This document shows, piece after piece, positions 31,295 to 37,560 of a stretch of DNA of 64,000 nt. Source of the DNA: Caenorhabditis elegans (lineage: Eukaryota; Nematoda; Chromadorea; Rhabditida; Rhabditidae); NCBI RefSeq assembly GCF_000002985.6, contig NC_003281.10, positions 13,330,001 to 13,394,000 of the forward strand. Reading direction: 5' to 3'. The notes under the pieces were generated by a model that was given only the letters and a program-made list of their open reading frames with translations, did no database searches and was not told the DNA's origin. Made by a program: the position numbers and the translations under genes. Position 1 is the first letter of the stretch; the number at the start of each line of letters is the position of its first letter.

Positions 31295-34200
31295 TCATTG
31301 CTCATTTTCCACGGAAACACTGTCCTCTCTTCCAGCAATCACTACATCTGTTTGGTATTTCAATTTGAAAAGCATCCATCCAAGTCCCTCGTCTATCATC
31401 ATGGCCACTCCCTGAAAGGAAAGACATTATAAAAATTTAAAATTCAGGACGTCAATCTGTCTGGTCCAAGAAATATTAATTTGGATCAAAATTTGGTTCA
31501 GGTGGCGCCCCTCTTGCATAACTTTGACTCTAACTTTAATATTTCATGTGTCAATTCAGACGGGCAAAACTCGAACCAACTCGGAACCAACTCTAGAGTG
31601 CAAGCTTGCCAACTTCAGCGAGAAGCTGGCCCAGAATGCCGAGAAGGTCTTGAATAATCCGAAGGTCTTGAATAATACATATGTGTCTTCACTGAAGCTT
31701 ATCAGGCAGTAATTCATCAGAGCTAAAGTTCAAAATGTCAAGATTCATAAATACTTACTCCAGAGTAAGAAGAAGGACAACTGCTGAGCGTGATCAATTT
31801 CTGATTTCTCAAGAAAAATGGATTAACTGTCAACTTGTTGCGGGATCTTATAATTGCCTTGAGCCCATTTTTCCGGCACACATCCTCAACTGCTTGAAGA
31901 CCGTAACGAAATGTCGATTTTTCTGAAAATTTTTTAGATAATTTTTTTTTCAATCTATTCAAATCACACCTTCATTGTGATCGAATATTGCCATTGTCGA
32001 AGATGGTTGTCCAAACAAAATATATTTAACATTCAATGGTAAGTTGTCAGGAATCAGAGGTCTTTCGAGTGAATTGATTTCGAATGGATCATAGATCATA
32101 TGAGGTGAGATACCACTTGAAACCGTCAAATATTGTTTTTAGATAAGTGCGAGTAATGGCATACAGTTGCACATTTGACGAGCAGCTCTGAAATTTAAAT
32201 TTTTCGAAAAAAAAAAACCATTTCTTCGCTGATCTAATTTTTCTTTTAATTCTTTTAAAATTCTTGATAACTCACGATAATACAGCATTATCCAGAGTAA
32301 CGTTGAATCTTGGTGCAAAAGAGAAAGCAGTTTCAGCAGATCCTCTCAACATGAATACATGCCTTGGATAGGCAATTTTGAGTGAAGCGATTAGAGAAAG
32401 ACATTCCACTGAATATTCTTCAAAATTACTAGATCCACGTTCAATGTATCCTCCCAGAAATAATAGTTTCCGACGATATGGTAGTCCAACTATTTGTAGC
32501 CAGCGGTGGAGGTCGGCGTATCTGTAAATTATAGAATTGTGCAATAAAGATTAGCAATCTTATATTTACATAGCATTGAACTAAATATAATTATCAGAAT
32601 GCAAAATTCATTTTAATTTGCCGACTCACCTTCCTCTAATCTCTCCAATAATGACAATTGGAAGTGAAAGTGACAAACAAATATTATCATGAAGGAATAA
32701 TTCTTTAGCATCATCAAATAATGAAATCAAATCGTTTGGCTGCCAGGGATAAAAGTACGGTCCGTGGTAGAATAATGCTTCGAAGACTGATTTGTGTGGA
32801 ACATGCCCAATCGGTTTCAGCACCTGCAGCATCAATGTTGGGAGTTTGACCAAAGCAAACTTAAGATACAAATTTACAGACGTTTCTGGGGGTTAATAAG
32901 GTTAACGTGTAGGCACAGAAATTCCTGATTGACAGCCTACAAGACCTATGCATTAACCCCTCATTAGGTACATCATCGTGCAAAAAGTTACATTTTTTCA
33001 AACAATTGTGAATGTCGAAATTTCCAGTTTACAGTCCTATCTAAGTTAACAGTCCTATCTGACGCACAAATAAAAAATCGTGTGAAAAAATACAACTGTG
33101 GTGAAAAAACAACAATTGTTTAATTAGTTTACGTACCAACTATGGCTCCTGAAAGTTGGAACATCCTTAATTTTTCCATCTCTACTTATCTATTCACATA
33201 CAATTTTTCTGTCAGTGCGTGATAACATCTGCCAACTGGCAACATAGCAATGCTGACTCTTAAAAATAGCGAAAAAAGACGGTTACGATGCCTGCCCATA
33301 GGCTCAGCTGCTAGAGGTCTCTAGCAGAAGAGGTAGGGGAAGGAAGCAGCTATGATGTCTCTATTAATCCTTCTCCCCTACAAACCGATTCCTGACATGG
33401 AAGACATATTACGGTATTTGATATTTGTAAGCAACTCACCCTATAAAGCTCGTGTCCAAGACCAGTTGATTTAAAAAATATCATGTACATATCTTCAGTT
33501 TTCTTGCATAGATTCATCAAATGAGTGATGTCATATTTATCGAGTTCTCCTACGTATTTCGAGTCAAAATGATGTTTGGTCGCTAACTTCATGTGCATTT
33601 TCTGTGCACCTAGATAGCTTTGCAATGCTTCAATTTGTTGCTTTTTGTAGTTTGCTTCCAAAAATTCTTTTCTCTCCATACTCTTCGATACATAAATCCA
33701 TCTTGAACCGACTTTCACATATCTTTTGTTTCTTTTCAATCGATTATATGCAATTTTCCATCGAACAAAATTAATTTCTCTGGCTGCACGCGCAAGTCGG
33801 AGATCATTTCGAAGAATTCTCGTTCGAACAATATTCGGATCAACCAGCTGACTTTCTCGAAGATTGTGGTCTCGACAAGAACGGGCGGCCAATACTCTAC
33901 AGTAGTCCAGTAAGGAATGTTGCCCACTGATGGGGAAACCTCCTGAAATTTGCCAAGTTTTGCATATTTGCCAAAAGCTCCCTAATTTGCCAAAAGTCTG
34001 CATAAGCTTAGCCAAAAGTTTTCAAATTTTAGGAAAAATTGCAACTTTGCCAAAAATTTTCAAAATAAAAAAAAATATAAAAAATTGCTGAAGCAATGCT
34101 AAAGGGTACGTAGATTTTGTCAAAGGTTTGCCAAAAGTATTCCAAATCTTTTCCTATTTGTATGAGTGCTCACCCAGATCCTTATGTCCCAACTTGACAA

Positions 34201-35191
34201 TTTTCATCGGCGGTTTTTCAGCCATCATCAATAATATTCGATCTACACTTTCTGCAGAGTCAGACCATTCTCTCACAACATTTGGTCGTATGACAAGCAA
34301 ATGATAGATCAAATATATAACTGATGCAAATAATAGTGAGACGACAGTATTACGAACGAAATCGTCAAGATGGCTTATGTCGGAACGAGCGAAATTCTGA
34401 AAATTCGTGGCAGTTATTTAAAAAATAACTTTAAAAAAAACTAACACCACTTTCAAGTTCCTGAGAAGTTTCGGGCGTTCCAAATCGGTTAAATGGTGTG
34501 AATGGAAATCGACTGAAACATTCTTTACTCTGAAAATTTTCGTTTATTTTAGACGGTATTAACGAACACTTTACCTGGCAACACATTTTGTAAAACGTTA
34601 TTCCAGCTTTGCTGTCGATAGTTGAATATCTGGAAAGTTTAGGCATAAAAAGTTTAAGGTGTTAAAAAAAGGAACTCACACAATAACATAAGGAAGTGTC
34701 TGACGATTTGTGCAAAATATTTTCGGATCCTCATCCCATGGAATAAAGTTTTGACAAGCATATTGAATAGTTTGGTCGGCTCTGAAAATATTTTTTTAAA
34801 TTTTTAATTGCAGTTTCCAATAGAGCTGGGGCATTTAGGTTTGAAGTTTTAAAATTGTGCCTGTGAGTTTTTAAATAGGAAAATTTGCCTTTTTTGATTA
34901 AAACTAAAAAAATTTGGCACGCAAGGGTCACAAAGGGACACAATGTGTTTTTGAGTAGGTCTTGCCACGATCTCTTAATTATATCTACAGGTGCGGCCGG
35001 CTAGCTTCCCAAGTGGATGCATTGCCAATAAGCGCACCCAAATTATTGTATCGAAAATTCCAAACCATCACTTACGTATTAAAAATCTTGACATAGAATA
35101 TGCTGCAATTCAAATTTTCCAAATTTTTCCAAATTTTTCCAAGGATTAACACGAGAATACACCATTTACAGAAGATTTTGATGAATTTCAT
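31295..35191 (-). CDS. Membrane-anchored PP1-like pseudophosphatase
   Basis: Minus exons 35076-35191, 34680-34781, 34575-34629, 34446-34529, 34174-34396, 33440-33942, 32630-32823, 32276-32521, 31970-32187 (or 31970-32115), 31759-31922, 31295-31411. Order: signal peptide (MKFIKIFCKWCILVLILGK), a cysteine-rich ectodomain of about 90 residues ending in MCCQSKECF, a transmembrane helix at about 136-155 (TVVSLLFASVIYLIYHLLVI), a basic helical linker of about 200 residues, then a PP1-fold domain from about 362. Motif changes relative to PP1: GDxHG is GEIRG, GDxxDRG is GGYIERG, RGNHE is RGSAE, HGGxSP is SSGISP, RAHQ is RSRN. All metal and catalytic ligands are therefore lost, and it cannot be an ordinary phosphatase. 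An in-frame TAA at 32139-32141 breaks the long form of exon 9; a TTTCAAG acceptor at 32116 would skip it and yield about 649 residues. It is either a bypassed stop or a recent pseudogene. Confidence 0.75.
32139..32141 (-). other. In-frame TAA inside the PP1-like domain
   Basis: Reading exon 9 from its good tttcag acceptor at 32188, the frame gives NCMPLLALI, then TAA, then KQYLTVSSGISP. Both sides align without a gap to the PP1 segment between the conserved NCxPxAA and HGGLSP motifs, so the stop replaces one ancestral codon. No alternative frame restores it. Confidence 0.8.
33308..33327. repeat. Short perfect inverted repeat
   Basis: ctgctagag and ctctagcag are separated by two bases, inside intron 6 of the pseudophosphatase gene. 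It is too short to call a structured RNA. Confidence 0.5.
33945..34150. repeat. TTTTGGCAAATT degenerate satellite in intron
   Basis: Repeats of a unit close to tttgccaaaagttttc fill most of intron 5 of the pseudophosphatase gene. Related arrays fill two introns of the neighbouring F-box gene (36060-36520 and 37150-37560). Confidence 0.55.
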
Positions 35192-36059
35192 TACGGGAAA
35201 ATTGAGAAATAAATTTTTATTCAGCGATGAGTTGGATTTAAAAAAAATCATAGTCTAACTTGGATATTCGAGAAAAACAGAGGGCACGTATAAAATATTT
35301 ATAATAGAACAGTAAATAAAATAAATGCAATTTCTAATTAAACTTTAAATATTATTAATCAGTGATTTTTGTTGAATTTTTTAATTAAAGGTAGGTAGGC
35401 GGGCAGGTAGGCGCGGGGAAGGCTCTAACTGTTCCAATTTTCTACTGTATTCTTCCGTGTTACATCGATGCTCTGAGATTTTGCCATGTATTCAGGCAAA
35501 TTAACATGAAGGTGTGGAATGGCTTCAACTAGTTTTTCATTAATAACAGAAAATCGTGCATAGTTATTGAGTCCGCAAAATAATGCATATCGATTTTTGG
35601 AGCCAAAAATTAGCAAATACTCAATCATTTCGTGGTCCTGAATGTCCTTGTCACTGGAAATTATTTCGTTGGTTTTTCATTAGTTTCAATTTTTAAACTT
35701 ACAATTTTCTAAAAACTCTTTCATCCAAACATTGAACTTTAATATCAGCTAGCAGACGTTCAGTTCTCAACGGACGAGTCACACTTGTCACTGCCAACCA
35801 ATCAAATGAATCTGGAAGATTTCCAGTTGACCATTTCTGAAATGAGCGGTGTTGTAGGAATATTTTCAATCACCTTACCGTAGCAAGATAATTAAAAGAA
35901 ATCTCATCTTTTACATTATTCAATTGAATTTGTCTACAACAAATTGTTGATAAGTGCTCGTGTCCAATTCCATCATATCCGGTGAGCTTGCATGTATTCA
36001 AGGGGTGTGAAAACTTAAATAAAATGTGGTGATGAAAAGTAATTTTAAAAATTCGAAAC

Positions 36060-36520
36060 AGTTAGAAATTTTTTGGCGATTGTCTAAAATTGTTTGTCAA
36101 TTTACCAGAACTTTTTGGCAATTTTCCAAAACTTTAAAACAATTTTTTTTTAATTTTTTTGTCAAAAAAAAACTTTATGGCAGTTTTTTAACATTTTTGG
36201 CAATTTTCCAAATCTTTTTGGCAGTTATCAACGCTTTTAGCATTTTTTTAGACAATTTTAGCAGTTTACCAAATTTTTTGGCAACATTGAATTTTGGAAA
36301 AATTTTTGGGAATCTACAAAAACATTTTGCCAATTTTCTGAAACATTTTGGCAACTTACCAAAACTTTTTGGCAATTTCCGAAATTTTTGGGCATTTTCC
36401 TTAACTTTTTGGAAATTTAACAAATTTGCTTTGATGCAAATTTTTTTGGCAATTTACAAAAATTGTTTTGCAATTTTCTGGAAATTTACTAAAACTTTTT
36501 GGCAATTTACAGAAGCACAA
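36060..36520. repeat. TTTTTGGCAATTTACCAAAAC degenerate satellite
   Basis: Most of the 515-bp intron between exons 4 and 5 of the F-box gene consists of diverged copies of a roughly 21-base unit (aaactttttggcaatttacc). Confidence 0.65.
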
Positions 36521-37149
36521 AAACCTACTTTCTCGTGGCAAAGGATTTTCTCCCAGTGATCAGACATTAGCATAAAATAAATATTTTCGCCAGAGATAAC
36601 ATCCAACCAATGTGGAATTGCAGATACTGGACGATCTGGAGAAAATATAATTTTGTTATGCTTTAGTCTCTAAGACTTACTGTATTTATCCGAGAAGCTA
36701 AAATTGGTAACTTCCAAACTAGAAGGGACCTGACCATTGTAATCGCCCTAATCACATTGATATTAAACCACTGGTTCAATAAATTTCAATTTTTTCTACA
36801 AAACCTAATATCCAAAGTATGAATCTTAGTTCCTTTCAACCATCCTTGAAAACAATCATCAGCCGCTTTACGGTAATCTCCTTTGACACTTCTCATTTCT
36901 GTTGAACCTTCATTTTTTGTAATATTCAATCCATTACGTTTCCCATATCGATCAAACCGGAATGAATATGATTTTTGATTGGATTCATCAAAATTAACTA
37001 ATATTTCTGCACATTTTCCATTGTGTCGAATTGGAGAAAATTGAAGGCAATGAATATGCGTTGGAACCTTTTTTACCAAATCGTAGTTGGATTTTGATGT
37101 CATTGATAATTTGGCTCTAAATTTTTTGAAGTATACTTTTGTGAAATGA

Positions 37150-37560
37150 TCTTTTCGTAAACAGGCAAACTTCGAAAACTAAAGTTGGCAAAAAAATTCC
37201 CCAAAACTTTTGGAAAGTGACCAAAAAGTTCTGAAAGTTTAGGTAAATTGCAAAAATGTATGAAATTTTTCTGAAACTTTGGCGAAATTGCCAAAAAATT
37301 TTGGTAAATTGCCGAAACGTTTTGGAAAGTTGCCAACAGCTTCGAAAATTCCCAAAAACTTTTGGTAAATTTTGGCTATACCATTTTCAAAAACTGCTAA
37401 CTTGTATTTTTTTTCAATGCCAAAAGTTTTGGTAAGCTGTCTGTTCGCGAATTTCCAGAAAGTTTTGATAAATTGCAAAAACATTTTCGTTAATTTGCAA
37501 AAGGTTTTCGAAAATTCAAGTTGCCAAAATGTTTTGGAATTTACTTAAAAATTTGCAAAA
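37150..37560. repeat. TTGCCAAAA degenerate satellite, inverse orientation
   Basis: The first intron of the F-box gene is filled by units such as ttttggtaaattgccgaaacg and ccaaaaacttttgg, the complement of the array at 36060-36520. Confidence 0.6.

What the first reader, a model, noticed from the sequence alone, without database searches (positions are those of the whole stretch)
31295..35191. A receptor-like PP1 pseudophosphatase: ectodomain, membrane helix and dead PP1 domain in one gene
Seen: eleven in-phase exons encode a signal peptide, a cysteine-rich ectodomain ending MCCQSKECF, a transmembrane helix, a basic linker and a PP1-fold domain. Known: PP1/PPP phosphatases are soluble and need GDxHG, GDxxDRG, GNHE and two more histidines. 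Here these are GEIRG, GGYIERG, GSAE, SSG and RSRN, so no catalysis is expected. Inference: it could be a membrane receptor or scaffold that uses a PP1 fold to bind PP1 partners or phosphoproteins. I do not know of a described receptor-type PP1 pseudophosphatase.
Basis: partly seen in the sequence, partly recalled or inferred. Interest (0 to 1): 0.88.

Follow-up and report, generated by a model that had tools for sequence, protein, structure and literature searches.

The report
Broken receptor-like dead PP1 phosphatase gene
This worm gene joins a short outer domain, a membrane helix and an inactive version of a common phosphatase; this copy is interrupted by a stop codon, but an uninterrupted sister gene on another chromosome shows that the unusual combination is real.

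Summary
The eleven-exon minus-strand model (35191..31295) is there: ten GT-AG introns, all in phase, a membrane helix and a PP1-like domain without its catalytic residues. Of six frame-keeping splices that would avoid it, none is convincing. Without bypass or read-through, the gene makes at most a 523-residue product.

The same genome (its length is that of the C. elegans N2 reference, as I recall it) holds a second, uninterrupted 12-exon gene on contig 2 (recalled name R03D7.8) encoding 596 residues: signal-like start, cysteine-rich ectodomain, membrane helix, linker, dead PP1 domain. The two PP1 domains match at 37% (E 1e-54), form a 100/100 clade, share two introns with phase, and share an extension that crosses the window's linker/PP1 splice.

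Verdict: the architecture is real at sequence level and, in the papers I could search, undescribed. The window copy is probably a recent pseudogene or a nonsense allele of the reference strain. The two ectodomains do not align significantly. Function is inferred.

The parts
35076..35191 (-). exon 1: ATG, hydrophobic signal-like stretch (least certain exon)
   Evidence: codon preference -0.01; single copy in the genome
34680..34781 (-). exon 2: ectodomain, C-x13-C
34575..34629 (-). exon 3: ectodomain, ends at MCCQ
34446..34529 (-). exon 4: ectodomain, SKECF
34174..34396 (-). exon 5: membrane helix (residues about 131-160) and start of linker
33440..33942 (-). exon 6: linker of 168 residues; its last 11 residues begin the family extension
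   Evidence: low-confidence helical model
32630..32823 (-). exon 7: family extension and start of PP1-like domain, GEIRG
32276..32521 (-). exon 8: PP1-like domain, GGYIERG and GSAE
31970..32187 (-). exon 9: PP1-like domain, SSG; holds the in-frame TAA
32139..32141 (-). in-frame TAA, codon 524 of 673
   Evidence: aligned with an Asp of PP1
31759..31922 (-). exon 10: PP1-like domain, RSRN
31295..31411 (-). exon 11: end of PP1-like domain, TGA

Best explanation
The locus is one of two detected members of a small worm gene family whose product is a single-pass membrane protein: cysteine-rich outside, a linker and a catalytically dead PP1 domain inside. The uninterrupted member is on contig (chromosome) II. 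The window member has recently been cut by a nonsense codon in the PP1 domain, either fixed or peculiar to the reference strain, so here it is a pseudogene or null allele. The family most likely works as a membrane-tethered pseudophosphatase: the PP1-like fold holds PP1-type partners or phosphoproteins at the membrane without removing phosphate, under control of what the ectodomain binds. Shown at sequence level: the architecture of both genes, common descent of the two PP1 domains, loss of metal ligands, the stop. Inferred: transcription, topology, surface location, lack of activity, partner binding.
For: In-frame TAA in an otherwise open, in-phase 11-exon gene. Uninterrupted sister gene with the same order of parts. 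PP1 domains 37% identical, E 1e-54; clade 100/100; two introns shared in position and phase, and 11 residues left of the exon 6/7 splice match the sister gene, 0 of 100,000 random draws as good. A probe of the family extension finds these two loci and no third at E up to 5. Ligand positions: 0 of 6 kept in the window gene, 1 of 6 in the sister; nine of nine other distinct loci checked keep the motifs where readable.
Against: No transcript data. The two ectodomains and membrane segments do not align better than shuffles. Exon 1 is weak. Both genes are long branches, so the clade could be helped by long-branch attraction. Two of the sister gene's splice sites score low. Only 10 of the many PP1-like loci were checked for motifs.
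Confidence: 0.6

Rival explanations
1. The window gene works: the TAA is skipped by an alternative splice or read through, or it is a minor allele of the sequenced strain while most wild worms have an open gene.
For: One stop and no frameshift in 2,022 coding bases, and all splice sites present. A frame-keeping skip exists: exon 8 donor to an acceptor at 32115, 649 residues.
Against: That acceptor scores -3.5 against 0.6 to 14.3 for the 21 used, and the skip would delete a stretch that the sister gene and PP1 keep.
Confidence: 0.2
2. The 523-residue stump (ectodomain, helix, linker, first half of the PP1-like domain) is a working protein.
For: Everything up to the stop is open and in phase.
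Against: The exons after the stop are still open and in phase and still match PP1 and the sister gene, as expected if they were translated until recently.
Confidence: 0.08
3. Two neighbouring genes are wrongly joined: a small membrane protein gene and a PP1-like pseudogene.
For: The outer halves of the two genes do not align; intron 6 is long, 616 bases.
Against: The family extension runs across the exon 6/7 splice, and the contig II gene has the same order of parts. The exon 5/6 splice is supported only by phase and order.
Confidence: 0.07
4. An ordinary decayed PP1 duplicate with no special architecture; the outer exons are chance open frames.
For: Worms have many PP1-like loci, some with many stops.
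Against: Exon 6 lies in a 223-codon open frame; the ligand losses are partly shared with an uninterrupted gene.
Confidence: 0.05

Closest known systems
Contig II gene beside a nanos-type and a GST gene (recalled as R03D7.8), C. elegans
   Same: Order of parts, PP1 domain 37% identical, two introns, family extension, two of the ligand losses
   Different: Uninterrupted; longer ectodomain with eight cysteines; linker of other sequence
PP1 catalytic subunits (PDB 8pq7, 3e7a and others)
   Same: PP1-type fold by sequence, E about 4e-27
   Different: Soluble by established knowledge; metal ligands kept; no outer domain or helix
Kinetoplastid PPP pseudophosphatases (PMC2175518, passages)
   Same: PPP domains with lost catalytic residues
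   Different: No membrane receptor architecture in the passages seen (term 'transmembrane' occurs 0 times in that text)
Receptor PTP pseudophosphatases such as PTPRN (recalled)
   Same: What it works like: ectodomain, one membrane helix, dead phosphatase domain inside
   Different: Unrelated phosphatase fold (PTP, not PPP)

Membership tests
PP1 / PPP phosphatases | Homology over the catalytic domain | tested here: met
   Pfam 6e-10, PDB PP1 3.8e-27, PP1 ranks above PP2A for both genes (calcineurin ranks second for the window gene)
PP1 / PPP phosphatases | Six metal-binding residues and GDxHG, GDxxDRG, GNHE (positions recalled) | tested here: not met
   0 of 6 in the window gene, 1 of 6 in the sister
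Pseudophosphatase | Shown lack of activity with a kept fold and function | not testable with these tools
   Sequence predicts no activity; nothing assayed
Receptor-type membrane protein | Membrane helix in the same reading frame as the PP1 domain | tested here: met
   Hydropathy; frame and splices; sister gene
Receptor-type membrane protein | Signal peptide and surface location | tested here: inconclusive
   Hydrophobic start in both genes; no predictor, no experiment
Three-finger / activin-receptor-like ectodomain | Match to the domain profile | tested here: inconclusive
   Window: no Pfam match. Sister: Activin_recp E 1.2, below cut-off
Two-gene family with the contig II gene | Extension before PP1, shared introns, shared ligand losses | tested here: met
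Two-gene family with the contig II gene | Homologous ectodomain | tested here: inconclusive
   Alignment z between -0.7 and 0.9; cysteine spacing alone shared
Working protein-coding gene | Open reading frame | tested here: not met
   TAA at codon 524

The most novel reading that the evidence does not exclude
Nematodes have a class of receptor-type PP1 pseudophosphatases, the PPP counterpart of the receptor PTP pseudophosphatases: an ectodomain coupled through one helix to a dead PP1 fold that gathers PP1 partners or phosphoproteins at the membrane. The contig II gene is a working member, and the window gene a member lost, or segregating as a null, in the reference strain.
Probability: 0.55. 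Interest if true: 0.72.

Novelty: new variant of a known kind. Interest (0 to 1): 0.55.

Why it matters
PP1 is known as a soluble enzyme steered by separate regulatory subunits. A gene family that fuses a PP1 fold, stripped of its metal site, to a membrane receptor would be a new use of that fold, in an animal where deletion and tagging are routine. The contig II gene can be tested at once, and the window gene offers a natural loss to compare across wild strains.

Tried and rejected
Splice bypass of the TAA: the frame-keeping GT-AG pairs between exon 8 and the end of exon 9 were listed (introns of 38 bases or more); six found, none convincing.

Ectodomain homology: alignments of window and sister outer parts against 2,000 shuffles gave z between -0.7 and 0.9 in six tests, so I do not claim it. 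The spacing C-x13-C, then CC-x4-C, occurs in 0 of 20,000 shuffles of the window ectodomain, but I picked it after looking.

More members: window helix and linker, only itself at E 0.001; window ectodomain at E up to 1, itself and one match on contig 6 at 0.9; sister outer half at E up to 1, only itself. I checked motifs in 9 distinct loci besides the sister (18 locus records) and in one more, partial (L036); one search lists 83 Metallophos matches.

Fold of the linker exon: mean pLDDT 45, so no fold search was made. Exon 1 and intron 1 as part of a repeat: no other copy found. A first script failed because the files were not yet there.

Papers: R03D7.8, 0 papers; membrane plus PP1 pseudophosphatase terms, 2 papers off the point by their listing; the other searches listed no paper whose title or abstract start describes such a protein. 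Full texts were not read; passages only of PMC2175518, PMC3827238, PMC8678631, PMC11125478 and PMC8601624. F53A2.9, found in 4 papers, is named in the three I looked into only as an insertion site or in a strain genotype; I could not tell whether it is this gene.

Full report
Setting. The genome held for the window has 100,286,401 bases in 7 contigs and the window is contig 3, 13,330,001-13,394,000. I recall this as the size of the C. elegans N2 reference. Neighbours in the window (a CS-domain protein, eIF4E, myotubularin) fit clone F53A2 of chromosome III, by recall.

The observation. I rebuilt the gene on the minus strand: eleven exons, 35191..31295, ten GT-AG introns of 45 to 616 bases, all phases consistent, 673 codons before the final TGA. 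Exon 6 lies in a 223-codon open frame. Codon preference, trained on 2,839 codons (worm PP1-like open frames plus the sister gene), puts the chosen frame first of three forward frames in 11 of 11 exons; it is at or below zero for exons 1, 3 and 11, and a frame of the opposite strand scores higher in exons 4, 6 and 11. So this measure alone would not prove each exon.

What was missed. Codon 524 is TAA, at 32141-32139 in exon 9. The reading around it runs without a gap along real PP1: window MPLLALI-X-KQYLTVSSGISPHM against [22 protein letters not shown], and along the sister gene. So it is a stop within a conserved stretch. Six GT-AG pairs would remove it and keep the frame. The best combines exon 8's own donor with an acceptor TTTCAAG before 32115, scoring -3.5 on a matrix made from the 21 introns of the two genes, whose acceptors score 0.6 to 14.3. 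It would delete the conserved stretch.

The sister gene. A search of the same genome with the PP1 half found many PP1-like loci. One of them, contig 2 at 10,953,594-10,956,878 on the minus strand, has the whole architecture: 12 exons, 596 residues, no stop; a hydrophobic signal-like start, an NTT sequon, eight ectodomain cysteines ending in KTCCFTPYCN, a membrane helix, a linker, then a PP1-like domain with GDIRG, GGILDSG, GEPE, YSG and RGQ. Beside it lie a nanos zinc finger and a glutathione S-transferase, by recall nos-1 and gst-5, which would make the gene R03D7.8. Two of its splice sites are weak in my matrices (a donor GTTCAG and an acceptor AATTAAG).

Common descent. BLASTP gives 37% over 282 positions, E 1e-54. 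Twelve PPP rows give the two genes as a clade with 100/100 support; both are long branches, 1.25 for the window gene and 0.84 for its sister against a median of 0.19, so long-branch attraction is a caution. Independent marks help. Of five window introns in or next to the PP1 region, two are in the same codon and phase as in the sister (codons 426 and 369, phase 2; codons 581 and 520, phase 1), two are not shared, and one lies outside the alignment. Both genes begin the PP1 region with an extension that starts K..G.GH.L and ends HGPY.YP. Its first 11 residues end window exon 6 and the rest is in exon 7, which supports that splice: no random draw of 100,000 reaches its score, and the next best 11-mer of exon 6 scores 8 against 27. 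A blended 39-residue probe of this extension finds these two loci and no third at E up to 5.

Ectodomain. Here the evidence is weaker. Neither local nor global alignment of the outer parts beats shuffles. The two share C-x13-C, then CC-x4-C, and a phase-2 intron shortly before the first of these cysteines; the spacing is absent from 20,000 shuffles, but I chose it after seeing both. By eye the window gene lacks a counterpart of the sister's exon 2, so its exon 1 may be wrong or its ectodomain reduced. Pfam has nothing for the window's outer part and Activin_recp at E 1.2 for the sister.

Catalysis. None of the six metal-binding positions (recalled from PP1 structures) is kept in the window gene; the sister keeps one. 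H to R in GDIHG and D to G in GDYVDRG are common to both. Nine of nine other distinct loci keep the ligands in the motifs that could be read (18 locus records; the fifth motif was not covered in two of the nine, and two have GDIHA in place of GDIHG). The common ancestor of the pair was therefore probably already dead, which makes the architecture, more than this locus, the finding.

Age of the break. A random substitution in this coding sequence makes a stop with chance 0.046. One stop in 2,022 bases is compatible, at the 95% level and counting stops alone, with at most about 100 neutral substitutions, about 5% (my arithmetic); the absence of frameshifts would lower this. The loss is recent or segregating.

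What it does. The most likely mechanism for the uninterrupted member is a membrane-tethered pseudophosphatase that binds without dephosphorylating, gated by an ectodomain ligand. It works like receptor PTP pseudophosphatases (recalled) without being one. This is inference from anatomy. Dead PPP domains as such are known, for instance in kinetoplastids (PMC2175518, passages). In the searches named, which cover open-licence papers only and of which I saw listings, I found no paper on a receptor-type one. Whether WormBase already carries either gene with this architecture I could not see, nor could I search another nematode.

Noticed in passing
L027:7879-4595 and L027:3227-2880: The uninterrupted sister gene lies upstream of a nanos zinc-finger gene on the same strand and not far from it; an operon with germline expression is possible.
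   Followed up: no
G000:C5:9566053-9566688 and G000:C4:5307018-5307653 (L001, L002): Two PP1-like genes with all motifs, on different chromosomes, are 96% identical in protein over the match: a recent duplication.
   Followed up: no
G000:C3:11788537-11789184 and 11790809-11791456; G000:C4:10750707-10751306 and 10955795-10956394: Pairs of PP1-like matches with identical scores in opposite orientation, with several stops inside in one read-through frame; stops may be introns or decay.
   Followed up: no
window 33943-34153 (intron 5) and about 36020-37540; also L008: Runs of a short unit like TTTGCCAAAAG, giving long odd open frames rich in F, N, G and K.
   Followed up: no
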